A stretch of DNA of 26,336 nucleotides from Spirogloea muscicola (Eukaryota; Streptophyta; Zygnematophyceae; Spirogloeales; Spirogloeaceae), in contig WELB01000125.1 of assembly GCA_009602725.1 (NCBI GenBank), forward strand, positions 192,424-218,759, given 5' to 3'. Both the position numbers and the translations under genes were made by a program. Positions within the stretch are counted from its first letter, which is position 1. The number at the start of each line of letters is the position of its first letter. The notes under the pieces are model-generated. The model made no database searches. It saw only the letters and a list, made by a program, of their open reading frames with translations, and was not told the DNA's origin. Of this stretch, positions 7,493 through 26,336 are shown piece after piece.

Positions 7493-7532
7493 CGGCAGCG
7501 TTCCGCGACGAGCCACCGTCGACGGCTCTCAT
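7493..7532 (-). other. possible additional 5' coding exon of the USP-kinase gene
   Basis: On the minus strand an ATG at 7532-7530 opens 13 codons plus one base, then meets a consensus GTGAGT donor at 7492. A pyrimidine-containing acceptor (TTGCCAG) at 6989 would join it in the correct phase to 6988-6918. That adds about 20 residues before the Met used in the main model, giving 820 aa. The intron would be about 500 bp and would contain the poly-C tract. Plant USP-kinases commonly have a short Gly/Ser-rich leader before the first USP strand, which fits this one. Without a transcript I cannot decide between the two starts. Confidence 0.4.
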
Positions 7533-8130: not shown

Positions 8131-8168
8131 GTCCCGGACGTCCCTGGGCAGGGGGCGTGCCGCCGCCG

Positions 8169-8288
8169 CACGTGCCTGAGATCCCCCCCCCGGCCGCACG
8201 TGCCCCCTTGGCCGGCCGCTGCGCGCCGAGCCCGCCACGTGCCGTACCGTACGGCCGCGGCGGCGGCCCCCGACCCATTCGGCACGTG
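8169..8288. promoter_or_regulatory. cluster of four CACGTG (G-box core) sites
   Basis: CACGTG hexamers sit at 8169-8174, 8197-8202, 8236-8241 and 8283-8288. In plants CACGTG is bound by bZIP and bHLH factors; ABA- and light-responsive promoters often carry clustered copies. The cluster is upstream of the minus-strand USP-kinase gene, about 640-760 bp before the possible 5' exon. It could be a distal promoter or enhancer for it. The same core is the anchor of the small-ORF promoters further right. Function is inferred only. Confidence 0.5.
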
Positions 8289-9841: not shown

Positions 9842-10010
9842 ATGGGGCACTGGGGCGCTCGGTGGCTTGAGCTACTTAACCAGCTCGCCCGCCACGCAAT
9901 CGACCGTCGCTTCCATGGTGAACCGGTAGACTTTCCTGCAGCCGGGTCGCTGGCGCAAGTGTATCGCATGCGCTTGGCCGTCTCGCTGCAGAGGTCCATG
10001 GCCCGTGCGC
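9842..10010 (+). repeat. gene-like fragment, left arm of an inverted pair
   Basis: On the plus strand, translation gives a W.ELL.QLA..AI.RR pattern followed by AAGSLAQVYRMRLAVSLQRS. A diverged copy lies in opposite orientation at 10260-10445. The motif recalls the A.SLAQVY segment of ABC1/UbiB atypical kinases. It is too short, and nothing around it supports that, so I make no functional call. It may be a captured exon. Confidence 0.4.
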
Positions 10011-10259
10011 TGCACCTTCGTGCCGGACGAGCCCTCGCTGCTGCCTCTGGCTCTGTCCAGGGGACCCACTTCCATGACCCTAGCCTCTCTGATTTGCGGC
10101 TTCTTAGCAGGGGTTACTGAGTGATTTGTAGCTGCTTTCTTTCTTTGTGTGCTTTGGTTTCTTAGCGCTTCCTCTGGCTTCCTCTGGCCCCCTTCTCGTT
10201 CTTTGTTCATTCTTTTTTGGGCTGGCTTGTCCAGCCCCTATCCTCAATGGGCGAGCCCT

Positions 10260-10445
10260 TTCTAAGAGCGCTGGAGCGAGACCGCCAGCCTCATTCGAAA
10301 TACCTGAGCGAGGGAGCCGGCACCTGAGCATTGAAGCCTGGCGAATCCGGCCGGCGCTCGATGGCCTGCCAGGCAAGCCGCTGCAGGAGATCCAACCAGC
10401 CGAAGGCCCCGTGAACGTCAATGGCGAGGGCCGCGAAGACATCGC
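10260..10445 (-). pseudogene. gene-like fragment, right arm of the inverted pair, frameshifted
   Basis: Read on the minus strand, this matches 9842-10010. One frame gives W.DLLQRLAWQAIERR; a shifted frame gives AGSLAQVFRMRLAVSLQRS before a stop. The conserved peptide is therefore split between two frames, which indicates decay. The arms are separated by about 250 bp. I do not recognise the source gene. Confidence 0.4.
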
Positions 10446-11737
10446 CGAGAGGATGTCGTGTATCTCGGGAGGAGGAAGAGGGGACAATGGTAGAAGCCCA
10501 AAACGAGCGAAAGAAAGTCCAAAGAGACCAAATGGAGCAAGTGCTTTTCTTCTGTTTTCCAGAGACGGCGGCGGAAGTAGGGGCAGCCCAAGTGGTTACT
10601 GAGATGGTGATAAGAGCTGCTGCTCTTGTCGTGAAGTGCGAGTTTTCCTGGGCTGGCCTGTCACAGCCATCAACTTACAATTCTTTACTGTGGAGAGCTG
10701 TAAAATTTTTGGAAAGATCTTCAGGATTTCAAAGGGCCAGGTCTAAGAGTCCAGGTGCAAAAGAGAGGCAGGTGGCTGGCCTCTGATGTCTTTTCTTCAC
10801 AGACTGGTCATTGTCAAAGGAGTTTAACATATTGTGATAGCAACTTCATTTAAGGTGGTGTACGAGCGGGGCGCGCTTCTAAGCTTGAAGTAAGCTCTTC
10901 CAGAAAGAAAGCTCTTCCAGAGGGGGCGTGAGCATGTAGAGCTCAGGGCTTCGGAGAGGTTCAGGAATAATCGACAAGGCGCAAATAAGAGGCAGGTGGC
11001 TGGGGAGCTGTTCATCCTACGAAACGACAAGGTCAGGGGGAAACCACAGGGCTTGGAAGCACCGAGATAATGTACGAACGGCGCGCCTCTAAGCGGGCGC
11101 TGCACTTGAATACCCGGGCGTTTGACAGTTGCCACTGCCGATGGACGTCCCTTCTCAGCGACTGGATTTTACTGGCCGCGGGGAAGTTCCAGCTTCTCAA
11201 AACATGGCCCCGGACACTTGATGAGCTTGCCCTTACGACCGACGACGGAGGAGGTTTACTGCCGACAACCACGTCCCTCATGGGTGCACGTCAATAGAGA
11301 GGCGCATCCGAAGGGGGCACGGGCTGTCAAAGAAAAGAAAGAAGTGGCTCTCTCAAATGGGGGCAAGGGCTGTGTAAGCCAGCCGAAAAGGATTGACAAA
11401 GTTCGAAGGGGCCAAACTAAGGGGCTGTCAGGGGCCAGCCCGAAAGTCGTCAAGGTACGACAGCAGCTCAGGCTGGCATCTCTGCTTTTGCTTCTGCTGC
11501 TGCTTCGTCGCTCCTGTCGTCACCGGCTAATCAGAAGATGCAGCTACACCAGGGCGGGGTGAGGCCCTAGAAGCTTAGGACTGCCCACCATTTAAATTTC
11601 CACAAGTCATTCACGGTGATTTGTCTCCAACCAGGGCATCGGCCGTCAGGTCACAGATACGCCAGATCCGAGCAGTTGGGCGGCCCAACGCACGTGCGCG
11701 GGATCTCGCCCCCGTGGGGGCCCAACCGGCGGCCGCC

Positions 11738-11950
11738 ATGGTTGCTGCCCCGCAGGTCGTGGGCGCCCACATTGCCATGGCGGCCCCGCCCGGCGCCGCC
11801 TGCTGGGGCAGGCCTTGGGGACCGCTGGCTCCCCGCCGCCATAGCGACGCCTGCCGGGCGCAGTCTGTCGGCTCCGCTTGGCCTCCCTTTCGTATCATGA
11901 CCGCTTGGCCTTCCTTTCTTAGAGATTCGTTTCGTAGCCTTTTAGCATAG
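11738..11950 (+). CDS. convergent small ORF of U1 (70 aa), unknown
   Basis: The ATG follows a GGCGGCCGCC context. The N-terminus reads MVAAPQVVGAHIAMAAP and continues GAACW, then LAPRRH. About 35 residues match ORFs at the same place in U2, U3 and U4 (M.AAP.VVGAH). After that the copies diverge in frame and sequence. It runs toward the 102-codon gene from the far end of the unit. Conservation could reflect a CpG-rich regulatory block rather than protein coding. No known domain is recognised. Confidence 0.35.
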   Translation: MVAAPQVVGAHIAMAAPPGAACWGRPWGPLAPRRHSDACRAQSVGSAWPPFRIMTAWPSFLRDSFRSLLA

Positions 11951-13506
11951 GCCTTCCTTATAGCCCCTTCACTTTCTTTAGTTTGCCTGAATAATGTGTC
12001 GGCTTGGATTGGCCACCCTTTCACTTCATGCGCACCGTGCGCCTTCCCCCCTCTCGTATTAGGCGCACCGCGCACCTTCTGCCGGGCACCCGGCTGCTGC
12101 CTCCTCCATTTCCTCACCTGGCAGCTCTGGTGCCGTGCCACCCATCACACGCTCCCTCGTTCTCGTGGGCTGGTCTTCACAGACACAACCCTTCATCCAA
12201 GCTGCTTTTGCCTCCACCAGCCCTTAGCACAACTGCAGTCTCAACAGCGGCCATCTGCGGCCTGCCAAGGGGGCCCCCTGCGGAGCATGGCGGGTGCGAA
12301 GCACGTGAGTCTCCATGAGCGCTCAGTAGGTGCTCACTGGTGCGTCCAGGCGGTGGCGCAGGCGGCGGGTTCTCGGCGCCTGAATGCCGTCCTCCAGCGC
12401 TTGCCAGTTGCCACCTTGACGTTTTGTCCGCTCTCACCATACTGACTAACAACTTCGTTTTCGCATTCATGCGATGATTTCTCACCACCTGGATCTCTGG
12501 GGAGAGAGGTCGTGCAGGACTTCTAGAGAAAGGAGCAGGCTATTATCCTCTTTCCAATCAAGGAGCTCGTTCTGTGTGGTGTCATAGGTCAGTGTGGAGC
12601 CCATGCAAGAGATGAACGTTAAGCTACACCTTCGTTTCCACTGCCCTACATTTAAGTGATATTCATCAGCATCTTCACATTCCTCTGTTGAACCTGTCAA
12701 GCACTTCCCTACAGTCCGTCATTGCTCTCATCCTAGGAACAATCTAAAGGACAAGGCAGTGCAGTGCAGAGGAGCGTGTCCTGCTGCTGTTGTGTGCCGT
12801 GTGCCCGCTGCTGTGTCATTTCTTCACACAGCCAGCAGTCTGGCATAAGGGACTCCGTCAGCGCGCGCGGCATGCGTGGCAGCAGGTGCAAAACGAGGCT
12901 AGTGTAGGGCGTGTGTCCAGATGGTTACGAGGCACAAGAAATCTAAGGACGTGCTCAATCGAGTGAGCATGCAGCGGCATATCATAGAAGCAGCGGCTTG
13001 TCTGTGGCAGGCGTTTGTAGCTAAACATTCTCTTGTGCGATTCCACAGGTACATAGCAAGTATCATAATTGGCCGAGTCTCCTTGTCATGAAAGAGTCGT
13101 ATACAAGAAAAAGAGACCAGTCACGAGTATGTGGTCCTATTTGTATCTGAGCAGCCCTAACGTGTGCTTGAGGAGGTTTCAGAGTACTCAAGCCTTCTGA
13201 TTCAAGTTTCGCTGATGTGCCTATCGGACTACAAAGCTTGTCTAACAGAATATGCTATATACATTTCATGCTACTTCCAGCCCAGCTGGTAAAGCAGGCA
13301 AGAGCAGGTAGAAGCAGGGCAGGAGCAGGCAGGGAGACAAGGGGAGTGCGATGAGCGAGGAGAGAAGGGTCGAATCTCTCGTGACGTGGCCTTCGAGAGG
13401 CTGCAGTCGCCTCCCAAATGAATTGTGAGCAGGCTGCCGCTCCCCAAAGCGTGAGTAACTAGGCTCGGTAAGTGCAAGGCCTCGCACGAAATGGTTGTCA
13501 CTGCCG

Positions 13507-13815
13507 TCAAATCATCGAGGCTGGCTGCCGAGACGCCGGCGCCGGCATCGTTGCACCAATGCCGCCGCTGCCACCGCCGAAGACGCTTCCGTGGACACCA
13601 GCGGGGACGCTGGCACCCTGGTGAGCCATGCCAGAGGGCAGGCTGCCGCCGCGGTAAAGATCGGGGGCGCCGGTCTGGGGAGTGGAGGAGTTGCCTCGCC
13701 ACCGGCGGACGGTCGCGGGCCTGCGCCGCGCTGCACGCTGAGCGACTGTTCTCGTCCCTTTTCTTATAGCCACCCTAACCACCAGCGCGACGAGTCTGAT
13801 CACCAGGCCGTGCAT
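13507..13815 (-). CDS. small basic/Gly-rich protein, array copy 1 (U1), intact 102 aa
   Basis: The ORF has 102 codons and ends in TGA, exactly the length of copy 4. Residues 1-22 are a hydrophobic, basic, potentially amphipathic helix (MHGLVIRLVALVV...). Residues ~25-43 are Arg-rich (ARRRPATVRRWRG). Residues ~49-72 carry GAPDLYRGGS and GMAHQGASVPAG, and ~76-86 are Gly-rich (GGGSGGIGA). The helix could be a membrane anchor or an organelle-targeting segment; this is inference. The start is fixed by the ATG being shared by copies 1 to 4, even though the frame is open far upstream. A G-box promoter lies upstream and unit flank downstream. I do not recognise the family. Confidence 0.65.
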   Translation of the reverse strand: MHGLVIRLVALVVRVAIRKGTRTVAQRAARRRPATVRRWRGNSSTPQTGAPDLYRGGSLPSGMAHQGASVPAGVHGSVFGGGSGGIGATMPAPASRQPASMI

Positions 13816-14190
13816 TGTGGGGTCGCCGGAAGCCGCTGCTGGCCGGAGCTGGCGGGCCGAGGCTGGCTTGGCCGCGAAAGTAAAGGGAAAGAACGAGCTG
13901 AGTCGAAGCGAGGCGATGGCGGTGAGAGGCCGGCCCAAAGGGACTGGGCAAGGCCAAGGCGCTAAGGTGCGGGGAGGGGCTGCTGGGCTCCTGCGGCGGC
14001 GGCTTGCGGCAAGGCTTGGCGAGGAGGCGAGGCGGTGCGGAGGTGGGGAGGAGAGTGTGGCTCGTTGCTGGGGCCAAGTGGGGCTTTTGAGCTGGGCAGA
14101 GCGTGCCCCCCCCTTCCCGGAGGGGGCCGGTACGTGGGGAGGGCGGGTCAGCGCGATGGTCAACCCTCGCTTCCGCGGCCGCCACGTGGC
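13816..14190 (-). promoter_or_regulatory. promoter and leader of small-ORF copy 1
   Basis: On the minus strand the order is GCCACGTGGC G-box (14181-14190), a W-box TTGACC (14159-14164) and a C-run/G-run hairpin (about 14105-14127). A CTCAAAAGCCCCACTTGGCC block (about 14072-14092) stands where unit U5 has TATAAAG. A GC-rich leader of about 270 nt follows. The leader contains a GGGCCGGCCTCTCAC-type copy of the dispersed hairpin module. G-box and W-box binding factors are known in plants, but activity here is inferred. Confidence 0.6.
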
Positions 14191-14361
14191 GGCCGCCTGC
14201 ATCAGCCCGCGTCTTGTCTGTCCCGGAGAGGCTACTTATTACAGGAATTAAATACTGGTCAATACAACAGCGGCGCCTGGGCCGGAGCCGTGCTTTTCAA
14301 CGTGCTTTTCCGTTTCGTGATCCATTCGGACTCCGCGGCCCGCGCGACCATGTAAGCGGCT

Positions 14362-15160
14362 GCCACGTGGCAACCGCAGAGGAAAGGAAACTCTCCAGGT
14401 GCGTTGACCGGCTCCCCAAAGTCTCCGCGCCGCGTGTCAGGGGGGGGGGGTGCCGTACCCCCACCAGGTCCAATGCCCCCTCCCCCCTCCCCTTCCCTCC
14501 CTCCCCTCTATCACCGTGGCCGCTTACCGGATGCCTCCCCTGGTCGGGGCGGGGGTCCTCCCCCCCCAAGCTGCATATCTGTCTTTCTTGCGACGATGAG
14601 GTCTGCAGCGTGCCCACCAGGCTAATGCCTTGCACCAGAATGCTGGGCGAGCTCTAGTTGGTGGCAGATGGGCTTCTTATCCAACATATAGTATTCAGGC
14701 ATCGATTAGCGACCTTTATGTTTTGCCCCGCGCTTACTGAGCAGGTCATTCTGCTGTAGGTCACATAGGTCTTAGATGTGCTTGCCTTTGTACTTGGCCA
14801 TTTGGCCTTCGTTTGTTTCAAATACACGAAATTCTATCCCCAGGACCGCCCCCCCCGTGGAACCGGGGGGGACGCTGCCCAGCTCAAACAAGAAAGAGCT
14901 GGGCAGCTCAAACAAGCCCCACTTGGCCCCAACTAGAGCCACTCTCCTCCCCACCTCCCCACCGCCTCTCCTCCTCGCCAAGCCCCGCCGCAAGCCGCCG
15001 CCGCAGGAGCCCAGCAGCCCCTTGCACCTTGGCGCCTGGGCCTTGTCCAGTCCCCTTGGGCCCGGCCTCTCACAGCCATCGCCTCGCTTCGACTCAGCTC
15101 CTTCTTTCCCTCTACTTTCGAGCCAAATTCAGGCTCGGCCCGCCAGTGCCATAGTTGCAG
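14362..15160 (+). pseudogene. promoter and leader relic of a lost plus-strand unit (P0), split by repeat C
   Basis: This has the array promoter order on the plus strand: G-box GCCACGTGGC (14362-14371), W-box TTGACC (14404-14409) and the CCCTCC-rich tract to about 14572. Repeat C then intervenes. The promoter resumes at about 14840 with the C-run/G-run hairpin (about 14849-14871), the CAGCTCAAA block and the leader, ending near 15160. No ATG or ORF of the small protein follows. A 24-bp stretch around 14879-14915 is duplicated, breaking the TATA-position block. It lies head-to-head with the U1 promoter. Confidence 0.7.
14573..14838 (+). mobile_element. repeat C, copy 2, inserted in promoter P0
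   Basis: Flanking sequence on both sides is continuous with the U4 promoter (22920-22990), so about 265 bp have been added here. The insert matches 1-236 and 15835-16050. The junctions are near CCCCAAG on the left and CCCCAGG on the right, which might be an imperfect target-site duplication. It has no ORF, so it would be non-autonomous. The element class is undetermined. Confidence 0.65.
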
Positions 15161-15534
15161 GGAAAAAGTCAAGCTGCGTCGACTGGGCGGCTGCATCGCT
15201 CGGTGTGCCTTTTTTCTTACCGTTCACTTCATGTCTATTGGGGCTGACCTCTTACGGGAAGGGCTTTGAAAAGCCTCAGCCCGAAAAAGCGGACAAGGTC
15301 TGAGGCCAGCCCAAAGGCATGAAGAAGGCCTGCAAGAGCCTTCAGAGCTGCATCCTGTCATTTATCAGTGACGACAGGAGCGCAAGACGCCGCAAAACTT
15401 CCATGACGCACAAGAAGCTCATGAGTGTCCACCTTCCAAATCCACAACCCATTCATGCTGGTTAGCAACCACTGACGCAACCTGGGAGTCGACGGCCCTT
15501 CGAGTCACTTACGCCATCCCCAAGCGTTTGTTGA

Positions 15535-15596
15535 GCTGGGCGGGGCGGCGCGTGCGCGCGAGCAGCGGGGCGGGGCGGCGCGTGCGCGTGAGTGCC
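15535..15596. repeat. GC-rich tandem duplication at the end of U2
   Basis: Two near-identical copies of a GGGGCGGCGCGTGCGCG-type sequence lie at about 15540-15560 and 15572-15592. Related sequence occurs once in U3 and U4 just before their convergent ORFs. It is a short local duplication in a CpG-rich block. Confidence 0.6.
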
Positions 15597-15621
15597 CCCG
15601 CGGGGCCCACCGGCGGCCGTC

Positions 15622-15975
15622 ATGGCTGCTGCCCCGCAGGTCGTGGGCGCCCACATGGGCGGCCATGGCGGCCCCACCCCGCCGTGCGCCGCCTGCTGCG
15701 GCAGCCCCTGTGGAGCCCTCGCTCCCCGCCGCCATGGCACCTCGCTCGGGCGCAGTCTGCCGGCTCCACTTGCCCTCCTTTCTCCCCTGCGTGAAAGTAT
15801 GCTTCTAGCCGAGATGGGCATGCCGGCAGCCTATTTGTCGTTCTTGCGACCTCGTGTGTCAGCCTTTCTGCAGCGATCTCCGGCTCATGCTTTGCACCAG
15901 AAAGCTGGTCGAGCTTCGGCGGTGGCACGCGGGCTTGTCAATTGCGGGCATCAGTTAGCGACCTCTACGTGCTGA
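15622..15975 (+). CDS. convergent small ORF of U2 (117 aa), unknown
   Basis: It starts MAAAPQVVGAHM and continues through CAACCGSP.GALAPRRHG, as in U4, then runs into inserted repeat C, so its C-terminus is not comparable with the others. A Kozak-like purine-poor GGCGGCCGTC precedes the ATG. No domain is recognised. Either a short peptide-coding region or a conserved GC-rich DNA element would fit. Confidence 0.3.
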   Translation: MAAAPQVVGAHMGGHGGPTPPCAACCGSPCGALAPRRHGTSLGRSLPAPLALLSPLRESMLLAEMGMPAAYLSFLRPRVSAFLQRSPAHALHQKAGRASAVARGLVNCGHQLATSTC

Positions 15976-16050
15976 CTCGTGGTTACTGAGCACGTCAGCT
16001 TAACAGCAGGTGATGTGCATCTGTGCTTGCCTTCGTACTTGGCCACCCTG
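15835..16050 (+). mobile_element. repeat C, copy 3, inside U2
   Basis: It matches copies 1 and 2 through TTCTTGCGAC, TTTGCACCAGAAAGCTGG, a CAGTTAGCGACCTCTACG block, CTGACTCGTGGTTACTGAGC and GTGCTTGCCTTCGTACTTGG. The corresponding point in U4 (near 25135-25155, reverse strand) runs directly from the GGCCTCCCTT block to the GCGCACCTTCT block without it. It is therefore an insertion specific to U2. Exact ends are uncertain by a few tens of bases. Confidence 0.65.
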
Positions 16051-16555
16051 GCCCTCCACCACACCAAATTTCTTTTCGTATCATGTCGTATCATGCGCAC
16101 CGCGCACCTTCTCTCGGGCACCCAGCTGCTGCCTCCTCCGTGTTCTCACGTGGCTGCTCTGCTGCTGTACCACCCGACACGAGCTCTCCTTTGCCTTGTC
16201 CACTCGTTTCTGGGCTGATCTTCAAAGCCATCGCCCCCTCTGTAGAAAGTTAGCTTCTACCTTCACCAGCCCCACAAGACCAGCAGCAGTCGGCATCGGC
16301 CATCTGTGGCCTGCCAAGAGGGGGGTTCTGCGGCGCATGCCGGCTGCGAAGCACGTTCAGTCTCCTTGAGCGCTTGGTAGGTGCTCACTGGCGTGTCCAG
16401 GCGGCGGTGCCAGCGGGGAATTCTCGGCGCCTGAAGGCCATCCTCCAGCGTTCGCTGGGTGCGACCTTGACCATGTGTCCTCTCTCACCATATACTTTAG
16501 GTTCTTCGATTTCAGTTTCATGCGATAATCCTTCACCACCTGCATCCTAGGGGGA

Positions 16556-16619
16556 AGAGGTCTTGCAGGACTTGAAGGGAAAGGAGCAGAGGTCTTGCAG
16601 GACTTGTAGGGGAAGGAGC
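16556..16619. repeat. 32-bp tandem duplication
   Basis: Two adjacent copies beginning AGAGGTCTTGCAGGACTTG lie at 16556-16587 and 16588-16619 and differ at a few bases. The equivalent places in U1 (near 12508) and U3 have a single copy, so this arose after the units diverged. Confidence 0.75.
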
Positions 16620-17611
16620 AGAACGATCTCCAAGTTTGTCAAAGAGTTCTGTTTGTTTTTCCATGAAACAAATCGTGCAGCCCATGCAAGATATTGAGCT
16701 TAACCTACTCTTGAGCGCCTTCAGTCCACTGCCTTGATTTTAGTAATTTTCCATCAACAAGCACAATCAGTTGCGGCTCTCCGTGGATTTCGCCAACACT
16801 TACTTACAGTAAATCCTCATCGGTATTGTTCTGAATAATCGATTAAGGTAATCGTCGAATTACAGTGCAGAGATGCGGGTCCTGTAGGCTGTGGACGGCG
16901 GCTGCTGTGTCATTCCTTCACACGGCAAGCAGTCCGGCATGAGGGACTCCTTAGTGCGCACGGCATGCTTGTGAGCAGGTGCAAAGCAGAGGCTAGTGGT
17001 AGGCCGTGTGTCCAGATGGGGATGAGGCAGACAAGATTGAGAATGTGCTAAATCAGAGGGAACAGTGCAACCGAATCACATGAGAGCAGCCGCTTGTTCT
17101 TTGCCGAACTTCATGATTATGCATTCAGCTTATCATTCTTGTCAAGTGCAAGTTTACAGGTGTGATGCAGATTCTGGGTTGGCTAAGTCTCTTTGTCAAC
17201 GACAGATGTGTACAAGAGCAAGGCTGGATCAGTAACGAGCATGGGGTCTTTATCGTATATGAGCAGCCCTTACATGTGCTTGATGAGGCCTTTTTGTAAA
17301 AGCACAATTTGTACCATGAATGGGTACTGTGCCTAAGCTCGGTCTGCATCTATAAGAGGCTATTTACATCTCATGCTGCTTCCAGCCAAGCTGGTATAGC
17401 GGGCAAGAGCAGGTAGATGAAGAGGGTGAGAGCAGGCAGGGATATCGGGAGTGCGACGAGCGAGGGGGAAGAGAAGGGCCGATCCTCTTATGGCATGGCC
17501 TCCGGGATGCTGCAGCCGCCTCCCGAATGGAATGCGAGCAGGCTGCCACAAAAGATGGTGCCATGGGCTCGGTACGTGTATGGCCTCGTACGAAGTGGTT
17601 GAACCTGCCTT

Positions 17612-17941
17612 CTACATCAACATGGCTGGCTGCCGCAACGCCGGCGCCAGAATCGGTGTACCAGTGCCGCCGCTGCCACCGCCAGCGACGCTTCTGTGGA
17701 CATCATCCGGGCCGCTGGCACCCTGGTAAGCCATGCCCTATTCCGAAACCCCAACTCTGCGATCCGGCTGCCGGCGCGGTACGTGTTGAGGGACGTCGGT
17801 CTAGAAGGTGGAAGAGGCGCCGCGCCACCGGCGGATGGTCGCGGGCCTGCGCCGCGCTCCACGCTGAGCCGCTGCTCTCGTGCCCTTCCTTACGACCGCC
17901 CTCACCACCAGCGCGACGAGTCTGATCACTAGGCCGTGCAT
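17612..17941 (-). pseudogene. small-ORF copy 2 (U2), interrupted by TAG codons
   Basis: The frame starts with the same ATG as copies 1 and 3 (MHGLVIRLVALVV...). A TAG at codon 47, where intact copies have CAG, ends a 46-aa ORF at 17801. Read past it, the frame continues for 110 codons with one more TAG at codon 68, and regains GMAYQGAS and the Gly-rich tail. An insertion of about 24 bp lies before GMAYQG. Most of the frame is preserved, so it decayed recently or the short product is used. Copy 3 has the same first TAG. Confidence 0.65.
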
Positions 17942-18462
17942 TGTGGGGTCGCCGGAAGCCGCTGCTGGCCGGAGCTGGCGGGCCGAAACTGGCTTGGGCG
18001 CGAGAGTAAAGGGAAAGAACGAGCAGAGTCGAAGTGAGGCGATGGCAGTGAGAGGCCAAGCCCCAAAGGGACTGGGCAAGGCAAGACGCGACGGTGCGGG
18101 GAGGGGCTGCTGGGTTTCTGCGGCGGCGGCTTGCGGCGAGGCTTGGCGAGGAGGAGAGGCGGTGGGGAGGTGGGGAGGAGAGTGTGGCTCTCGTTGTCGG
18201 GGCCAAGTGGGGCTTTTGAGCTGGGCAGCTGCCCCCCCGGTTCCAGTGGGGGGGACCCCGCCCCCAACCAGGGGAGGCTCCTGGTAAGGGGACACAGTAA
18301 CAGAGGGGAGGGAGGCAATGAGGAGGGGGGAGGGGGGCAGTGGACCGGTGGGGGTACGGCCGCCTCCCGGACACGTGGCGCGGGGACTTTTGGGCGCCGG
18401 GCACCCTGGTCGGGGTCAACGCAGCTGATGAGCTTCCCCCGCCTGTGCGGCCGCCACGTGGC
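17942..18462 (-). promoter_or_regulatory. promoter and leader of small-ORF copy 2
   Basis: On the minus strand: G-box GCCACGTGGC (18453-18462), W-box TTGACC (18414-18419), a second ACGTGG core (18371-18379), a C-run/G-run hairpin (about 18232-18253), a CTCAAAAGCCCCACTTGGCC block (about 18200-18220) and a leader. There is no TATA box. It faces the U3 promoter head-to-head across about 160 bp. Confidence 0.6.
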
Positions 18463-18621
18463 AGTCACTCGGGTGGCCGTGCGAGTCGCCGAGTACCAAT
18501 AGATGACTGAAATGAATCAAATTATAAAATCAACGGCACACTGAACAACGTTTCCTCCGTCCCCCCGATATTTACATATATGAGTGAGTGGCTCCCCCCG
18601 GCGCAGGGGATGCGAGCAGCA
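18463..18621. other. AT-rich centre of the inverted duplication
   Basis: This 159-bp spacer separates the G-boxes of U2 and U3. It is much more AT-rich than both sides and includes AAATTATAAAAT near 18520 and ATATTTACATATAT near 18570. It is the axis of symmetry of the array and could act as a shared divergent promoter. No ORF is seen. Confidence 0.6.
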
Positions 18622-19028
18622 GCCACGTGGCGGCCGCGGAAGCAAGGGTTGACCCGAGCGCTGACCCGCTGCGTTGACCGGCTGCCGCCCCAAGGTTGGG
18701 GCGGGGGGTCCCCCAGACCGCTCCCCCGGAACGAGGGGGGGCAGCTGCCCAGCTCAAAAGCCCCACTTGGCCCCAGCTAGAAGCCACTCTCCTCCCCACC
18801 TCCCCACCGCCTTCTCCTCCTCGCCAAGCCTCGCCGCAGGCCGCCGCCGCAGGAGCCCGGCAGCCCCTTCCCGCACCGTCGCGCCTTGGCCTTGCCCACT
18901 CCCTTTGGGCATCGCCTCTCACTGCCACCGCCTCGCTTCGACTCAGCTCGTTCTTTCTCCTCTACTTTCAAGCCCAAGCCAGTTTCGGCCCGCCAGCTCG
19001 GCCCGCAGCGGCGTCCGTCGACCCCACA
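18622..19028 (+). promoter_or_regulatory. promoter and leader of small-ORF copy 3
   Basis: G-box GCCACGTGGC (18622-18631) followed by GGCCGCGGAAGC as in U1, W-boxes TTGACC (18649-18654 and 18674-18679), hairpin (about 18722-18741), CTCAAAAGCCCCACTTGGCC (from 18753), then a leader of about 270 nt. The leader includes CCCTTTGGGC...CCTCTCACTGCC, a degraded copy of the dispersed hairpin module. Confidence 0.6.
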
Positions 19029-19358
19029 ATGCACGGCCTGGTGATAAAACTCGTCGCGCTGGTGGTGAGGGCGGTCGTAAGGAAGGGCACGAGAGCAGCG
19101 GCTCAGCGTGGAGCGCGGCGCAGGCCTGCGACCGTCCGCCGGTGGCGCGGCGCCTCCTCCACCTTCTAGACCGACGCCCCAATCTGTACTGCTCCAGCAG
19201 CTGGTCGAGGATCAGGTTTTAAGATTCAGGGCATGGCTTACCAGGGTGCCAGCGGCCCGGATGGTGTTCACGGAAGCGGCGCCTGCGGTGGCAGCGGGGG
19301 CAATGGTGCAACGATGCTGGCGTCGGCGTTGCGGCAGCCAGCGCTGTCAACTAATTGA
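19029..19358 (+). pseudogene. small-ORF copy 3 (U3), one in-frame TAG
   Basis: It begins MHGLVIKLVALVV and matches copy 2 closely. A single TAG at codon 47 (19167-19169) ends a 46-aa ORF. Apart from that codon the frame is open for 110 codons to a TGA at 19356-19358, with GMAYQGAS, a Gly-rich stretch and an RQPALS end. About 21 bp are added relative to the intact 102-codon copies. Around the stop the changes from the intact form are C to T and G to A (TCC CAG to TTC TAG; GGC to GAC). It is probably a young pseudogene. Confidence 0.65.
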
Positions 19359-21400
19359 AAGGCAGGTTCAACGACTTCGTACGAGGCCATGCACTCACCG
19401 AGCCCACAGCACCAGCTCTTGGAGAGCGGCAGCCTGCTGGGGAGGCGGCTGCAGCATCTCGGAGGCCATGCCGTATGAGGATCAGCCCCTTAGCTTGCCC
19501 CTCGCTCGTCGCTCCCCTTATCCCTGCCTGCTCTCACCCTGTTCATCTACCTGCTCTTGCCCGCTTTACCAGCTTGGCTGGAAGCAGCATGAGAATGTGA
19601 ATAGCCTCCTTCTAAATGCAATTGGAGCTCTGTATTCGGGTAGGCACAGTACCCATTCTTGGTACTTACATTTTCTTACAAAGGCCTCCTCAAGCACATG
19701 TAAGGGATGCTCGGACATCATAAAGACCACATGCTCGTGCTTGGTCCAACCTTGCTCTTGTACACGAGTCACACGTTGACAAAACGACTTGGCTAATCCT
19801 ATTATTTGCAACACACCTGTATTTATGCACTTGTAACTCCCTGCAATGGACTAGCAGCTGGTTCTATGAGATTCGGCTGCACTGTCCACACGATTAAGCA
19901 CGTTCCCAACACTCTTGTGCCTCAGACCCATCTGGACACACGCGCTACCACTAGCCTCGCTTTGCACCTGCTGCCAAGCATGCCGTGCCCAGTGACGAAG
20001 TCCCTCATGCCGGACTGCTTGCTGTGTGGAAAAATGACACAGCAGCTGGGGTACACAGCCTACAGGAACCGCTCCTCTGCACAGAAAGTCTATATCTTGT
20101 CTCTGATCATCCAAAGCGAGGGCATTGAGGCTTTACTAGAAAGAAGTATCTGGTGAAATAAATGTGTAGGGCTGCAAAACATTGTGCTGATAGAGATCAT
20201 CAAATACAGGGTAGAGGACCAAAGGTGCTCAAGAGTAGGTTATGATAACAGAAGTCGTCACCTGCATAGGCTGCACTGCACATTTTGTCCTTTGGAGCAA
20301 CATAGGGAAGATGGTCCTTGATTTGGATACTTGGAAATTGTGTCCTGTTCCTTTCTTTGGAGGTCCTACACGACCTTGCTCCTAGAGACCAAGGTGGGCG
20401 ATACCCTTGATTTTGTATCATTGTCTGCCGTACCAATTTATAAGCACTTCCCTGTACACAGTTTTGACTTTCGACCAATTTAGACATCATGTGGTTCTTA
20501 GTGGCAGACTGTTCACCTTGACGTTGGATTACTTCGGAACCACCAGAAGCACCTTACGTGACCACTGGACAAATGGCTTGTATCACTTTCTTCGTATACT
20601 TTGCTATAAACCCAGATTATGGTAGTTTAGAAGCGATATTGGATTCTTAGTTGATTGAAGTAAAAGCGCGAAAAAGAAGCGTCTTGACTTCTCAGAAGAT
20701 CCCTCTTGGTGTATTGCCAAGTGACAAGGCATAAGTTTTCTTTAAATCGACATACAAAGGTCCGAATCTCGTCAGTCCAGATCATTGACTGACTTTGTTA
20801 CGTATATCTAATGAAATAGAGATCGGCATAATCTAATGTGATTACTAAATGTAGTGAGCGGATACATGACTAAGGCGGCAAATGGCGACCGCTGGAGGAA
20901 GACCTTCAGGCGCCAAGCTCCCCGCCGGCGCTGCCGTATGGACACGCCAGTGAGCAGCTACTCAGCGCTCAAGGAGGCTCGACGTGCTTCGCATCCGGCA
21001 TGAGCTGCAGGGCCTCCCTCTTGGCAGGCCGCAATTGGCCGGCAGATGGCACATGGTCGACTTCCGCTGTGAGGCTGTTGCAGGTAGAAGGAGCTTTGTA
21101 AGACTCCGACTTGCTGCTGCTCACTCGTGGTTACTAAGCTTCCATCTGCGGTAGTCTTGTGTCTAGCTGTGTGGTTTTAGGCGCCTTCCGGCTCTTGCTC
21201 TTTGGACACTGTCCATTCTTTTTGGGCTGGCCTTTCCCAGCCCCTACCATCAATGGGAGAGCACTTTCATATCTCAAGAGGGCGACGGCTGTGAAGACCA
21301 CCCCACAAAGGATGAACAAGGCGAAGGAGAGCGTATGTTAAAAGTGGCACAGCACCAGAGAGGCCAGGTGAGCACATGGAGGAGGCAGCAGCCGGGTGCC

Positions 21401-21565
21401 CTAGAGAAGGTGCGTGGCGCGCATGATGCCGGAGGGAGGCCAAGCGGAGCCGGCCGAGATCATGGGGTCGCCATAGTGGCGGCCCCAGGCGCTGCCGCAG
21501 CAAGCGGCGCAGGACGGGGCAGCCATGCCAATGTGGGCGCCTACGACCTGCGGGGCAGCAGCCAT
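21401..21565 (-). CDS. convergent small ORF of U3 (54 aa), shortened
   Basis: It starts MAAAPQVVGAHIGMAAPSCAA and then diverges. The sequence matching the middle of the U4 ORF (PSLGHPAAASSM) continues in another frame, so this copy has an indel and ends early. It is read toward the small-ORF gene of U3. Function unknown. Confidence 0.3.
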   Translation of the reverse strand: MAAAPQVVGAHIGMAAPSCAACCGSAWGRHYGDPMISAGSAWPPSGIMRATHLL

Positions 21566-22325
21566 GGCGGCCGCCGGTGGGCGACGTCGCGCCCACACGC
21601 GCCGCCCCCGCTCGCACTTGTCACGTTCCAAGGCCGATGCAAAACAGCGTGAATGCGTTTGTGGACTTTGGATGATGGAGAGTTATCGGCAGTTTGAAAA
21701 CTCTGCTGCGTCTTGCGCTCCTGTCGTCATCAGTAAATTAGAAGATGCAGCTCTACTGGCTCTTTCAGACCTTGTTCATGTCTTTGGGTTGGCCTCGGAC
21801 CTTGTCCTCTCTTTTCGGGCAGGCTTTTCACAGCCCTCGCACCCTTGGGATGAGCTTACTGTCTTCCAGCCATTGCCTAGCGTTGGATGAGCTGTTCCTT
21901 TCTCTTTTCACAGCCCTCAGCAGCTTTGCAAGAGCTGCTCCTTTCTACTTAAGAGGCATTAGTGTAACGAGCAATAAACTGCTATACAGAGCAAGGCGAT
22001 GGCTGAGCATTCCCTTGTGGGAGGAAGAGCTCTGCAAGGAAATTGCTGTAAGAGGCCAGCCCAAAGGGCATGTACAAGGTCTGAAAGGGCCATCTCCCTG
22101 CAGCAGTCCTTAGCGTTTGCCGTTCCACTTGCGGGCAGGCCACACCTTGGTTGCTGCCTTCTGCCTCCAGGGTCCGTCAGGGCGACGCTTTTTCTTTCCC
22201 TCTAACTATTCTGATCTGCACTTGCTGACTAGAGGTCATTGAGCGCCCACTTGCAGATGTCATGGAGAGTAAGTAGTATCCTCCCTTATGAGGCTTCTGG
22301 CCCTCCGGACCTTGTACAACCCTTT

Positions 22326-22479
22326 GGGCTGGCCTCTCACAGCCATTTGCCTTGCATTGAAAGAGCTGCTTCTCTGGGCTGGACTCTCACAAATGGGCGA
22401 GGGCTGGCTTTCACAGCCATTTGCCTTGCATTGAAAGTGCTGCTTCTCTGGGCTGGACTCTCACAAATGGGCGAGGGCT
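22326..22479 (+). repeat. 75/74-bp tandem repeat of the hairpin module
   Basis: Two complete copies start at 22326 and 22401, and a third begins GGGCT at 22475. Each holds GGGCTGGC.T.TCACAGCC, ATTTGCCTTGCATTGAAAG and CTGGGCTGGACTCTCACAAA. The second copy is one base shorter within the hairpin. It is the only place in the window where the dispersed module is tandemly repeated. Confidence 0.85.
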
Positions 22480-22777
22480 AAGCCAGCAGAAGAATGGACA
22501 AGGTCCAAGGACAGGAGAAAGCGCGGCCAGATTGACTGGTGGCTGGGAAAGGCCAGCCCAAAGGAACAAACAGCTCTTCCAAAGGAAAACAGAGAGGAGA
22601 AAGGCAGTGGCTGTAAGCGGTCAGCACAAAAGGAATCACGTGAGAAGTAATAATTGGGAGAAGGCCACACCAAACGATGCGGCGTTCTGCTCAATCGGCG
22701 CAGCTAGAGATTCTCGACCAATCTCTACGCCGTGACTGGCTCCCTAAATAGACAAAGCACAAGTTGAGCAAGCATCT

Positions 22778-23278
22778 GCCAAGTGGCGGCCGCAGGTGGA
22801 AAGTCAACAAAGCAGTCAAGGAGCCCTGGCAGCTCGGGGGCGCTGTCCCGGCACCGGTCCAACCACCCTCCTCCCCCCCCTTCTCCCCCCTCCCCTCCGT
22901 CAGTGTGTCCGCCTACCGGCAGCCTCCCCTGGTCGTGGGCGGGGGTCCCTCCCCCCCCCCAAGGTCACCCCCCGTGGAACCGAGGGGCCGCTGCCCAGCT
23001 CAAAAGCCCCACTTGGCCCCAACAACGAGCCACTCTCCTCGCCTCCCCCACACCGCCTCCACTCGTTGCCAAGCCTCGCCGCAAGCCGCCGCCGCAGGAG
23101 CCCAGCAGCCCCTCCCTGCACCGTCGCGCCTCGGCCTTGTCCAGCCCCCTTTGGGCCGGCCTCGCGCAGCCATCGCCTTACTTAGTATCAGCTCGTTCGT
23201 TCCCTCTACTTCCGCGCTCAAGCCAGGCTCGGCCCGGCAGCCCCGGACCGCACCGGCGTCCGGCGAGGCGAACCCACA
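22778..23278 (+). promoter_or_regulatory. promoter and leader of small-ORF copy 4
   Basis: It begins with GCCAAGTGGCGGCCGC (22778), a one-base-mutated G-box, then has a GTCAAC (reverse W-box core), a CCCTCC tract, a CCCCCCGTGGAACCGAGGGG hairpin (about 22968-22987), CTCAAAAGCCCCACTTGGCC (from 22999) and a leader of about 270 nt with TTTGGGCCGGCCTCGCGCAGCC. The lost palindrome may weaken factor binding. Confidence 0.55.
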
Positions 23279-23587
23279 ATGCACTACGTGCTGATAAACA
23301 TCGCCAGGCAGGTGGTGTTGAGGTATCTGAGGAAGCGCATGGGAACCGCGGCTCAGCGTGGAGCGCGGCGCAGGCCCGCGACCATCCACCGGTGGCGCGC
23401 CTCCTCCCACACCTCCCAGACCGGCGCCCCCAACCTGTACCGCGGCGGCAGCGTGCCCTGTGGCATGGCTTACCAGGGCGCCAGCGTCCCCGCCGGTCTC
23501 CACCAAAGCGTCGCCGGCGGTGGCAGCGGCGGCACTGGTGCAACAATGCCGGCGCCGGCGTATCGGCTGCCAGCCTCGTGGATGTGA
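23279..23587 (+). CDS. small basic/Gly-rich protein, array copy 4 (U4), intact 102 aa
   Basis: It has 102 codons and a TGA stop, equal in length to copy 1. The N-terminus (MHYVLINIARQVVLRYLRKR) differs in sequence from copy 1 but keeps the hydrophobic/basic alternation. Then come ARRRPATIHRWR, GAPNLYRGGSVP, GMAYQGASVPAG, GGGSGGTGA and the tail. Changes between copies fall mostly in the helix, while the LYR and GMA.QGASVPAG motifs are kept, as expected if the protein is or was selected. Role unknown; a membrane-associated or organelle-imported peptide is one inference. Its promoter has a damaged G-box and no TATA box. Confidence 0.65.
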   Translation: MHYVLINIARQVVLRYLRKRMGTAAQRGARRRPATIHRWRASSHTSQTGAPNLYRGGSVPCGMAYQGASVPAGLHQSVAGGGSGGTGATMPAPAYRLPASWM

Positions 23588-24922
23588 CGGCAGTCACAAT
23601 CACTTCGTTCGAGGCCATGCATTATTTGAGCCTATAGCTTATGCTTCTGGAGAGCGGCAGCCTGCTTGCGTTTCATTTAAGAGGCAGCTGCAGCATCTCG
23701 GAGGCCATGCCATGGGAGATTCGGCCCTTCTCTTCCCCTCGCTCGTCCCCCTCCACTTGTCTCCCCTGCCTGCTCCTGCACTGCTTCTACCTGCTCTTGC
23801 CCGCTTTACCAGCTGGGCTGAAAGTAGCATGGGATGTGAATAGCCTCTTATGCAAGACAAGCTTTGTAGGCCCTCAAAAACAGTAGCGATACTTGGTATA
23901 GAATGCTTGAGTATTCTGAAAGCTCCTCAAGCACACATTGGGGCTGCTCAGGTTCAAATAGGGACCACATGCTCGTGACTGGTCTCTTTCTTTTGTATAC
24001 GACACTCGCACAAGGAGATTTGGCCAGTATCAAAGTTTGCGATGCACCTGTGAACGTTCTCTAGTCGAGAATGCTAAAATCCTGCCATGGACAAGCTGCT
24101 GCTTCTATTATATACCGCTGCAAGCTCACTCGATCTAGTACAACCTCAAATATCTATCTTGTGCCTCATATCCATCTTGACATGCGCCCTGCACTAGCCT
24201 CGTTTCGCACCTGCTGCCAAGCATGCCAAACGTACTGACGGGGTTAGGGTCATGTCAGACTGCTTACTGTGGAGAAATGACACAGCAGCTGGCCTACAGA
24301 ATGAGCGACTCTGCACTGTAACTCGACATTTTCCTTTTCCACCTTTTGGTTGATCATCCAGGACGATAGCAATGACGTTCTACTGTAAAGGGGTGTTTGG
24401 CGAATTTCACAGCGTAATGTGGACTGCTGATGAAGGTCACTGAATGTAGGGCAGTGGACCAAAGGTACTCAAGCGTAGCTTAATGTTCATCACTAGAATG
24501 GGCTGCACAGTTTGTCCTATGAAACCACATATGGAAGGAGCTCGTTGATTCGAAGAATTGGGGACTTGGAAACTTGGAGACAGTAGTCTGCTCCTTTCTC
24601 AAGTCCTTCACAACCTCGCGAAAGATATTCCGAAGAGATCAGATTCGAAGAGATATTCCGCGGAGATCTCAGGACATCCAGGCGGTGAGGAATCATTGCA
24701 TGAAGGCAGAAATTGAAGTGGTTACTCAGTATGGTGAGAATTCAAACGTCAAGGTGGCAACAGGCAAGAGCTGGAGGACGGCATCCAGCCGCCGAGTAGT
24801 CCCCGCCGGCGCCGCCGTCTGGACGCACTAGTGAGCACCTACTAGTAGACGCTCACGGAGACTCAACGTGCTTTGCAGCCGGCATGGACCGCAGGGGTCC
24901 GGCCTTAGCAGGCCGCAGGCGG

Positions 24923-25285
24923 TCAACTTTGACACTGCAGTTGGGCCCGTGGGGCTGGTGGAGGCAAGAGCAGCTGTAACAAATGGGGCGTGGCTGTAAA
25001 GACCAGCCCACATGAAACTGAACCAGGTGAAAGAGAGCGTGTACTAGGTGGCACAGCACCAGAGCGGCCAGGTGAGGACATGGAGGAGGCAGCAGCCGGG
25101 TGCCCGGGAGAAGGTGCGCCTTTCAGAAGATACGGAAGGGAGGCCAAGCGGAGCCGACGGACTGCATCAACAAGGTCGCCATGGCGGCGGGGAGCCAGCG
25201 CTCCCAAGGGGCTGCCGCAGCAGGCGGCGCAGGGCGGGGCCGCCACGGCGATGTGGGCGCCCACCACCTTCGGGGCAGCAGCCAT
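24923..25285 (-). CDS. convergent small ORF of U4 (120 aa), longest copy
   Basis: It starts MAAAPKVVGAHIAVAAPPCAA and continues CCGSP.GALAPRRHG, then PGHPAAASSMSSPGRSGAVP, also seen in frame pieces of U2 and U3. It ends within a copy of the hairpin module near 24990. It has many Ala/Pro residues and a C.ACC cluster. The frame is open upstream of the ATG to 25915, but only the part from this Met is shared among units. Not recognised; coding status doubtful. Confidence 0.35.
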   Translation of the reverse strand: MAAAPKVVGAHIAVAAPPCAACCGSPLGALAPRRHGDLVDAVRRLRLASLPYLLKGAPSPGHPAAASSMSSPGRSGAVPPSTRSLSPGSVSCGLVFTATPHLLQLLLPPPAPRAQLQCQS

Positions 25286-25415
25286 GGCGGCCGCCGGTGG
25301 ACCTTTGGGGGGCAACTTCGCGCGCATGTGCGCCGCCCCGTCTGCCTTTAGTACGAGATAGTGATTATTAGCATCAGTCGCCCACCTGCTAATCGCGCAA
25401 TGGGCACAGTAGGCC

Positions 25416-26131
25416 GCCACGTGGCAGCCACGGCTTGAGGCACCACGTGGCACTCGCACAGGCATGGAACAGCGCCACGTGGCGATCGGTATGGGCTTGA
25501 GAGATGCATCGTTGACGGCTTCGTTGACTAAAGTGCCGCTGCCGTTACCTGGCAGGAAAGCGCCGCGCCGCCTCCGGGCGTGCGGGGGTTGCTGCCCATG
25601 TCTGTTTGAGTACCCACTGCACCATCTGATTGTCACGCTGGCACTCTTTGTGCGCCACGCTGGCAGGTTGGACGATTGCGATTGAGGCCGGCGTAGATCG
25701 TGCAATGCTGAGCGTTGGGCAGCAGGCGGCGGCTCGTCGGTGTGAAACGGCACCAGAAAGCGAAGCTTCTTGGTAGCCCCGAGGGCACCGCCCTTAGCTT
25801 CGGCCAAATCTGCTCTCCCCCTCCCGCCACCCCCCCACCCCCCCCCGTCTGGCTCTTCATTCGCTGACTGGCCGCCTCCCTCGGTAGGCCCCCCCCACCC
25901 CCCAGGCCAACCCAACCGCGTCCTCGTCCCTCTCGGACCTGCGGCGCTGCTCAGCTTATAAAGCCCCGCTTGGCTTCCACTTCCGGCTCACTGCACAGCA
26001 CACCCCTCCTCCACTTCCCGAGGCCTTCGGCTGCCGGGCGGCTCGGCGCTCCACACCACCTAGCGCCCGAGCCAGCCTCGCTTGCAGCCTTGGTGGGCTC
26101 GCTCGTCGCTGCGACTCCGACCCCGAGCCGC
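25416..26131 (+). promoter_or_regulatory. promoter and leader of small-ORF copy 5, with TATA box and three G-boxes
   Basis: G-boxes are at 25416-25425 (GCCACGTGGC), 25443-25450 (CCACGTGG) and 25474-25483 (GCCACGTGGC). TTGAC cores are at about 25512 and 25524. TATAAAG is at 25957-25963, followed by CCCCGCTTGGC, the same context that carries CTCAAAAG in the other copies. The leader is only about 170 nt from the TATA box and lacks the module seen in other leaders. This looks like a working plant-type inducible promoter; induction by ABA, light or stress is inference from the G-boxes. Confidence 0.65.
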
Positions 26132-26336
26132 CATGAGCTTCCTGCTGAAGTACGTCGTCAAGGCTCTGGTGGTGAGCTTTGTGAAGAAGCGCTTGTGGAA
26201 GGCGGCTCAAGGTGGCGCCCAGCGCGCGCCCGCGAACATCCGCCAGTGGCGCGCCGCCTCCTCAGCCTCCCGCGCCGACGCCCCCAACCTGTACCGCGCC
26301 GGCAGCGTGCCCTCTGGCATGGCTTACCAGGGCGCC
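26132..26336 (+). CDS. small basic/Gly-rich protein, copy 5 (U5), cut by window edge
   Basis: The ATG lies in GAGCCGCCATGAGC. The 68 visible codons are open. The N-terminus MSFLLKYVVKALVVSFVKKR is a clear amphipathic, Lys-rich hydrophobic segment. It is followed by AQRAPANIRQWRAASS, DAPNLYRAGSVPSGMAYQGA, aligning residue for residue with the 102-aa copies. It is the most diverged copy, the least Arg-rich, and has the only intact TATA promoter. It may be the functional parent of the array copies. The 3' end is outside the window. Confidence 0.7.

What the first reader, a model, noticed from the sequence alone, without database searches (positions are those of the whole stretch)
11600..26336. 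An amplified unit carrying an unrecognised 102-aa protein gene with its own promoter
Four full units, one cut unit and one promoter relic share promoter, leader, small ORF and flank. Two copies keep exactly 102 codons and the APNLYR / GMA.QGASVPAG motifs despite divergent N-termini. I know no family with this layout (amphipathic basic helix, Arg-rich stretch, LYR-type motif, Gly-rich tail). It could be a stress-inducible gene cluster, or a non-autonomous element that has captured a host gene.
Basis: partly seen in the sequence, partly recalled or inferred. Interest (0 to 1): 0.8.

Follow-up and report, generated by a model that had tools for sequence, protein, structure and literature searches.

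The report
Clustered orphan small-protein genes, algal genome
A probably triplicated green-algal genome carries small clusters of related genes for an unknown 102-residue positively charged protein, including shortened 46-residue versions that look maintained; it is a local gene family, not a jumping element.

Summary
Window 11.7-26.3 kb holds four full units of about 2.4 kb (A, B, C, D), one gene cut by an N run (E) and one promoter relic. Genome-wide, the protein occurs as 16 copies on four contigs, and a 3' piece of the unit matches only the same clusters: a clustered gene family, not a mobile element. Ten copies are open, in three classes: alpha (E, cut), beta (D), gamma (A). Six (B, C and four elsewhere) share a TAG at codon 47. 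E is a more divergent paralogue, not another unit copy. In the six short copies the first 46 codons are conserved and indel-free while sequence after the stop decays, so a 46-residue product may be maintained. An exact GCCACGTGGC G-box lies 368-720 bp upstream of 12 of 16 copies. The LYR reading fails (LCR in 2 of 10); amphipathicity is not above shuffles. No convincing relative was found in Pfam, PDB, viral or prokaryotic contigs; no eukaryotic collection was available. dN/dS is 0.17 (alpha, six differences), 0.59 (gamma), 0.90 (beta); all intervals include 1. Transcription and function are untested. The organism is probably a zygnematophyte.

The parts
13507..13815 (-). Copy A, gamma class: 102 codons + TGA (MHGLVIRLVALVV...)
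17801..17941 (-). Copy B, delta class: 46 codons then TAG (MHGLVIRLVALVVRAVVRKGT...SSTF)
19029..19169 (+). Copy C, delta class: 46 codons then TAG; divergent partner of B, 1088 bp between the two start codons
23279..23587 (+). Copy D, beta class: 102 codons + TGA (MHYVLINIARQVV...)
26133..26336 (+). Copy E, alpha class, 68 codons then a run of N (MSFLLKYVVKALVV...); 97.1% identical in DNA (198 of 204) to C81_1
14893..15146 (+). Promoter/leader relic, lying where a divergent delta partner of the gamma copy lies on C81 and C105
   Evidence: assignment to a lost delta copy is inference
14600..14800 (+). High-copy dispersed repeat between A and the relic
   Evidence: 2243 first-look candidates; 40 scored and listed, the query itself among them, all at 90% identity or more
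14181..14190 (.). GCCACGTGGC (G-box), 368 bp upstream of A; second one at 14362-14371, 549 bp upstream
18453..18462 (.). GCCACGTGGC, 514 bp upstream of B; another at 18622-18631, 405 bp upstream of C
22778..22787 (.). GCCAAGTGGC, one-base variant of the G-box upstream of D
   Evidence: read; no exact motif there
25416..25483 (.). Three CACGTG sites (two of them exact GCCACGTGGC) 657-715 bp upstream of E
25957..25962 (+). TATAAA in front of E; copies A-D have CTCAAAAGCCCC at the matching place
   Evidence: read; function inferred
11711..12157 (-). 3' segment of unit A (counterparts 15595-16230 in B, 21328-21580 in C, 25032-25298 in D)

Best explanation
A small protein-coding gene family, with no relative in the libraries searched, was amplified locally by tandem and inverted duplication in a genome that is itself probably triplicated. 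Four classes exist: alpha (most divergent, fewest replacement differences between its two copies), beta and gamma (102-103 codons), and delta (six copies sharing one TAG at codon 47). Gamma/delta or delta/delta pairs face away from each other across a spacer of 1.03-1.18 kb, and most copies have an upstream G-box. The protein has a basic hydrophobic N-terminal part predicted as one helix (residues 3-29), an Arg-rich stretch and a Gly-rich, apparently unstructured tail. Shown: copy number and clustering, shared start, stop and frame, class structure, G-box position, and that delta conservation ends at its stop codon. Inferred: that the genes are transcribed and translated; that delta arose by one nonsense mutation and then multiplied; that the N-terminal 46 residues are a working module by themselves (most likely one that binds membranes or nucleic acid, since they carry 10-12 K/R and no D/E); that the tail is needed only in the long classes; that a plant-type G-box factor drives the genes.
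For: 16 copies on four contigs; unit 3' segment only in the same clusters. Start and stop at the same codon in 9 of 9 complete open copies. Between the six delta copies no gap in codons 1-46 in 15 of 15 pairs, against 9.5-17 frameshifting gaps per kb after the stop, upstream and downstream. Delta variable sites 19/138 before the stop, 73/189 after it (P 5e-7), 70/284 upstream (P 0.011); before/after P 0.0009 and 6e-6 in two subsets of three copies; the step is absent in beta+gamma, 54/138 against 57/189. Coding part more alike than the pooled rest in 14 of 14 pairs. Alpha coding part 97.1% against 81-86% upstream, P 7e-8. Frame 0 is the only frame without stops in all four classes (15 of 16 copies, C81_7 left out) and has the lowest pN/pS of six frames in alpha and gamma. 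Within-class dN/dS in codons 1-24 is 0.16-0.44. 15 exact GCCACGTGGC in the four clusters, 15 of 15 upstream of a start codon.
Against: dN/dS is 0.90 within beta and 0.72-0.75 within delta, and for beta and delta frame 0 is not the lowest of the six frames (beta +2 frame 0.60 but with stops; delta +2 frame 0.50, stop-free over 46 codons), so amino-acid constraint is weak there; low silent divergence may reflect gene conversion. Bootstrap intervals include 1 for all classes. In 3 of 14 pairs one or two flank segments are as conserved as the coding part. The ten open copies were picked because they are open, so their lack of frameshifts (0 against 13.4 expected) is partly by construction. No transcript data. 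AlphaFold2 mean pLDDT is 53.6. No eukaryotic collection was available to show relatives.
Confidence: 0.73

Rival explanations
1. The unit is a non-autonomous mobile element that captured a host gene.
For: Units are multiple, partly inverted, and share flanks; a dispersed repeat lies among them.
Against: All 16 copies are on four contigs, in clusters, and C125, C27 and C81 also share the sequence beside the cluster. The dispersed repeat is a separate sequence: it is in high copy number, the unit is not.
Confidence: 0.06
2. Only alpha (E and C81_1) is a working gene; beta, gamma and delta are segmental-duplication debris kept alike by gene conversion.
For: Point dN/dS: alpha 0.17 (68 codons, six differences) against 0.90 (beta), 0.59 (gamma) and about 0.75 (delta). 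Patchy identity: C81_2/C81_5 96% over promoter and coding part but 83% and 78% downstream; C81_3/C81_4 99% after the stop but 76% further downstream.
Against: Start, stop and frame are kept in 8 of 8 beta and gamma copies (though these were picked as open). Delta conservation ends at its own stop codon, which conversion alone does not predict. Within-class codons 1-24 dN/dS 0.16-0.44.
Confidence: 0.19
3. A reading of function, not exclusive of the gene-family reading: the N-terminal 46 residues are an organelle-targeting presequence and the Gly-rich part is the mature protein.
For: No D/E and 10-12 K/R in the first 46 residues of 9 of 9 proteins; a helix is predicted there. That such composition is typical of presequences is recalled.
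Against: Delta keeps only this part, which would leave a presequence without cargo. Between-class dN/dS of 1.8-3.2 in codons 1-24 (alpha, beta and gamma or delta; 0.35 for gamma-delta) is unusual for a mere targeting signal (recalled).
Confidence: 0.25

Closest known systems
Lineage-specific (orphan) small-protein gene clusters
   Same: Small, basic, no relative in the libraries searched, few clustered copies, local duplication.
   Different: Parallel classes in a triplicated genome and a truncated class whose conservation stops at its own stop codon. Absence from other algae was not testable here.
LYR-motif (Complex1_LYR) proteins
   Same: A Leu-Tyr-Arg triplet in 8 of 10 open copies.
   Different: No Pfam match, triplet at residues 53-55 in a part predicted unstructured, LCR in 2 of 10 copies.
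Cationic membrane-active (antimicrobial-type) peptides
   Same: Short, strongly basic hydrophobic N-terminal part; amino-acid-changing differences between alpha, beta and gamma.
   Different: Helical moment not above shuffled sequences; no activity data; a resemblance from recall only.

Membership tests
LYR-motif (Complex1_LYR) proteins | Match to a Pfam LYR model | tested here: not met
   No family for D and A at E<=0.001; 9 members scanned at E<=1 gave only FAM176 at 0.16 in one
LYR-motif (Complex1_LYR) proteins | Invariant LYR triplet | tested here: not met
   LCR in C81_2 and C81_5, 2 of 10 open copies
LYR-motif (Complex1_LYR) proteins | Helix bundle around and after the motif (recalled) | tested here: inconclusive
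   Only helix 3-29 predicted, mean pLDDT 53.6
Non-autonomous transposon | Many dispersed copies | tested here: not met
   four contigs only, counts being lower bounds
Non-autonomous transposon | Terminal repeats and target-site duplications | not tested
   Identity fades gradually at the unit edges; no systematic search made
Protein-coding gene family | Start, stop and frame kept between copies | tested here: met
   9 of 9 complete open copies share start and stop codon; no gap in codons 1-46 in 15 of 15 delta pairs
Protein-coding gene family | dN/dS below 1 | tested here: inconclusive
   alpha 0.17 (six differences), gamma 0.59, beta 0.90, delta about 0.75; bootstrap intervals include 1 in all four
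Protein-coding gene family | Transcription and translation | not testable with these tools
   No RNA or protein data available
Cationic antimicrobial peptide | Amphipathic cationic helix | tested here: inconclusive
   Moment 0.14-0.47 at residues 2-19; best windows reached by 221-562 of 2000 shuffles; net charge +9 to +12 over the first 44-46 residues, five peptides

The most novel reading that the evidence does not exclude
The family makes two selected products: a 102-residue protein, and from delta genes a 46-residue peptide born by one nonsense mutation that kept only the basic N-terminal module. The delta genes then multiplied and sit in divergent pairs with the long form or with each other, under shared G-box control. 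The N-terminal helix diversified by amino-acid-changing substitutions when alpha, beta and gamma/delta parted (dN/dS 1.8-3.2 between them, 0.16-0.44 within classes, 0.35 between gamma and delta), as expected for a membrane-active or defence peptide.
Probability: 0.28. Interest if true: 0.6.

Novelty: new member of a known kind. Interest (0 to 1): 0.37.

Why it matters
It is a small-protein family without a match in the libraries searched, in what is probably a zygnematophyte, the lineage next to land plants (recalled). The delta class offers a natural test of how a truncated gene product can be kept: conservation ends at the new stop codon, in copies from three genomic places. Without expression data it remains a solid but fairly ordinary orphan gene cluster.

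Tried and rejected
TAG as a sense codon: considered because six copies have an in-frame TAG at codon 47 (a Gln codon in 8 of 10 open copies). Rejected: the sequence after TAG decays, and the nine best of 104 HSP70 matches are free of stops (TAG appears in three of the weaker matches, which may run into introns).

Antisense or shifted frame as the real gene (C81_7 left out): minus frame 0 is stop-free in beta and gamma but gives pN/pS 1.42 and 1.62, and it has stops in alpha and delta. The +2 frame gives a lower ratio than frame 0 in beta (0.60 against 0.90) and delta (0.50 against 0.72), but has stops in beta and gamma and 9.0 (no silent change) in alpha. So frame 0 is the best single frame, not the best in each class.

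Longer spliced gene using the conserved 3' segment as an exon: I looked by eye for splice sites and opposite-strand frames. The segment is gapped and only about 0.6 identical over 25131-25276 in eight units. Not pursued.

Weak extra hits of the alpha search (C36, C52, C163, C12; E 0.02-0.51) were judged noise and not read.

Rfam and tRNA scans of the window: 0 hits. Fold library search was not run because the model is low-confidence. RuBisCO large subunit search: 0 matches, presumably because no plastid contig is held. The first LHC search of the PDB used the wrong strand (0 hits; seen) and was repeated on the right strand.

A lichen alga (Trebouxiophyceae) as source: considered first and dropped after the GRAS result.

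Placing C105: 3,000 bases of its flank, about 7 kb from its last copy, match C82 (85%) and, over 682 bases, C252 (100%), not C125, C81 or C27. So whether C105 is the rest of the C27 cluster or a fourth place is unresolved. The C81 flank fetched in the same call (L021) was not searched.
Full report
WHAT THE GENOME IS. The window is C125:192424-218759 of a 153-Mb, 471-contig assembly; the window has 57% G+C. The genome has chlorophyll a/b-binding genes (one exon matches chlorophyll a-b binding chains in the PDB) and GRAS genes (92 exon matches, 89 of them marked over the cut-off). As I read the tables, HSP70 and GRAS exons mostly come in sets of three alike copies on different contigs, some in two or four. 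Window 3000-6200 has two counterparts, C27 (88%) and C81 (86%). I infer a triplicated genome. From recall, GRAS genes point to a streptophyte. A recent triplication is known for the zygnematophyte Spirogloea muscicola (class; triplication stated in a passage that I read of PMC9065682, citing Cheng et al. 2019, which I did not read). I take this alga or a close relative as probable, not shown.

COPIES. Searches with D (18 matches) and alpha (23 matches) give 16 gene copies: C125 (5), C81 (7), C105 (3), C27 (1). Four weak hits (E 0.02-0.51) on C36, C52, C163 and C12 I dropped as noise. The unit's 3' segment (window 25032-25330) gives 20 matches, all in the same clusters. The tool warns that such counts are lower bounds. 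Runs of N lie inside or within 2.3 kb of the last copy in all four places, so further copies may be hidden.

CLASSES. Alpha: C125_E (cut after 68 codons) and C81_1. Beta: C125_D, C105_1, C81_2, C81_5. Gamma: C125_A, C27_1, C105_3, C81_7. Delta: C125_B, C125_C, C105_2, C81_3, C81_4, C81_6, all stopped by TAG after 46 codons. Nine complete open copies have 102 codons (103 in C81_7, a 3-base insertion) and all end in TGA at the same place. In trees of all 16 copies, alpha is one group with 100/100 support upstream and at codons 1-46. Its place differs: apart from all others upstream, but with beta at codons 1-46 (100/99), so 'oldest' is not shown. Beta is one group with weak support upstream and at codons 1-46 (71 and 68% bootstrap). 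Gamma and delta are not cleanly separated upstream, at codons 1-46 or downstream (15 copies), but delta is one group at codons 47-68 (100/100), where its sequence is altered.

ORDER. Turned to one direction, C125 reads gamma(-), relic(+), delta(-), delta(+), beta(+), alpha(+), N. C81 reads gamma(-), delta(+), beta(+), delta(-), delta(+), beta(+), alpha(+), N. C105 reads gamma(-), delta(+), beta(+). C27 reads gamma(-), N (positions). Four divergent pairs (C81_3/4, C81_6/7, B/C, C105_2/3) have start codons 1033-1184 bp apart (coordinates used). The relic at 14893-15146 lies where A's delta partner would be; a dispersed repeat sits between. That the relic is a lost delta copy is inference.

IS IT CODING? 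ORF length is no evidence here. The coding part differs less than the pooled rest in 14 of 14 chosen pairs (Fisher P 0.03 to 5e-24). The rest includes poorly alignable distal sequence, and in 3 of 14 pairs (D/C105_1, A/C105_3, A/C81_7) one or two flank segments are as conserved as the coding part. Five pairs have 0 frameshifting gaps in 1428 coding bases against 13.4 expected from flanks; these copies were chosen for being open, so the cleaner test is delta. Between delta copies, codons 1-46 have no gap in 15 of 15 pairs and 94.7% pooled identity. After the stop identity is 81.9%, upstream 89.3%, downstream 74.7%, with 9.5, 13.7 and 17.0 frameshifting gaps per kb. Variable sites in delta are 19/138 before and 73/189 after the stop (P 5e-7) and 70/284 upstream (P 0.011). 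Two subsets of three copies give 12/138 before against 43/191 (P 0.0009) and 54/189 (P 6e-6) after. Beta+gamma show no such step (54/138, 57/189, P 0.10), beta alone a small one (12/138, 31/192, P 0.049), gamma none (27/138, 28/189, P 0.3). Copies are not independent, so these P values are only a guide.

SELECTION. Mean dN/dS: alpha 0.17 (68 codons; four silent, two replacement differences), gamma 0.59, beta 0.90; delta pN/pS about 0.75 over 46 codons, 0.72. Bootstrap intervals include 1 for all four. Against the other five frames, frame 0 has the lowest ratio in alpha and gamma but not in beta or delta (C81_7 left out). In codons 1-24 the within-class ratio is 0.29 (alpha), 0.16 (beta), 0.26 (gamma), 0.44 (delta). 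Between classes it is 2.51 (beta-gamma; pN/pS interval 1.15-5.65), 2.33 (alpha-beta; 0.93-5.56), 1.81 (alpha-gamma), 3.16 (beta-delta) and 0.35 (gamma-delta). In codons 25-46 within-class ratios are 1.69 (beta), 1.22 (delta), 0.65 (gamma) and 0 (alpha): the Arg-rich stretch shows no such constraint outside alpha and perhaps gamma. So the N-terminal helix was changed by replacements when alpha, beta and gamma/delta parted, and then kept. Low silent divergence in the coding part beside more diverged flanks, and patchy identity between copies, point to gene conversion as well.

PROTEIN. First 46 residues: 10-12 K/R and no D/E in 9 of 9. AlphaFold2 on nine sequences predicts one helix, residues 3-29 (mean pLDDT 76 and 74 for residues 1-10 and 11-20, 53 for 21-30), the rest unstructured; mean pLDDT 53.6, pTM 0.22. 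Helical moment is 0.14-0.47 and not above shuffles. Pfam: nothing for two proteins at E<=0.001; nine at E<=1 gave FAM176 at 0.16 in one. PDB: best E 0.21 with one protein, 0.28 with the profile, taken as chance. IMG/VR and the prokaryotic genome collection, each scanned with two short patterns from the alignment: 53 and 71 stretches matched a pattern, none a relative by tblastn.

PROMOTER. GCCACGTGGC occurs 15 times in the stretches of the four clusters that I held, 15 of 15 upstream of a start codon, at 368-720 bp. By distance 12 of 16 copies are the nearest gene to one; C81_4 shares its spacer with C81_3; C105_3 has a one-base variant; D has only GCCAAGTGGC (read); C27_1 has none in the 631 bases before its N run. 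In window 11600-26336 there are 6 against 0.01 expected from a first-order Markov model, and 0 in 1-11599; for the core CACGTG it is 12 against 2.96 (at most 8 in 100 random sequences), and 6 in 1-11599. The copies are homologous, so these are not independent. In eight aligned units the sequence at about -450 to -320 is only 0.52-0.63 identical, though beta pairs keep 0.79-0.88 at -450 to -300. GCCACGTGGC is listed as the binding site of the tobacco G-box factor TAF-1, called a homologue of Arabidopsis GBF3 (passages of PMC4055858). Stress induction is therefore possible and untested.

LITERATURE. A search for papers with two of Spirogloea, orphan gene and lineage-specific gave 466, of which 8 were listed, none with the word Spirogloea. 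This is no proof that the family is undescribed. PMC11126685 was seen in passages only.

VERDICT. Its protein motifs were over-read. The unexpected part is the delta class, which behaves like a maintained 46-residue truncation. Function remains inferred. On re-checking I lowered three odds slightly (best explanation 0.75 to 0.73, novel case 0.30 to 0.28, interest 0.38 to 0.37) and raised the debris rival from 0.17 to 0.19, because frame 0 is not the best frame in beta and delta.

Noticed in passing
window 14600-14800: Dispersed repeat with 2243 first-look candidates genome-wide (40 scored and listed, all at 90% identity or more); an 83% alike stretch at window 20-175. Possibly SINE-like; ends not determined.
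   Followed up: partly
window 2480-3565, minus strand: Frames that read like a plant-type receptor-like protein kinase; 2480-2908 matches Pkinase at E 3e-5, below the curated cut-off, and 3302-3565 has no Pfam match.
   Followed up: partly
window 8608, 8866, 15302, 21224, 22052, 22326, 22549: Recurrent GGGCTGGCCT / AGGCCAGCCC words, with a 74-bp tandem pair at 22326-22479.
   Followed up: no
C105:333020-333440 (locus L022): Another dispersed repeat of about 420 bp: 266 first-look candidates, 40 scored, most matches 69-89% identical.
   Followed up: no
C105:333000-333681 and C252:86439-87120: 682 bases identical between two contigs at the edge of that repeat: recent copy or assembly overlap.
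   Followed up: no
C125:218760, C27:559694, C105:350462, C81 below 400374: Runs of N lie inside or within 2.3 kb of family copies in all four places, so the assembly breaks or is withheld in or beside the cluster.
   Followed up: partly
C81_3/C81_4 (C81:409298/410331): Inverted delta pair 99% identical just after the stop but 76% further downstream: sign of recent conversion between palindrome arms.
   Followed up: no
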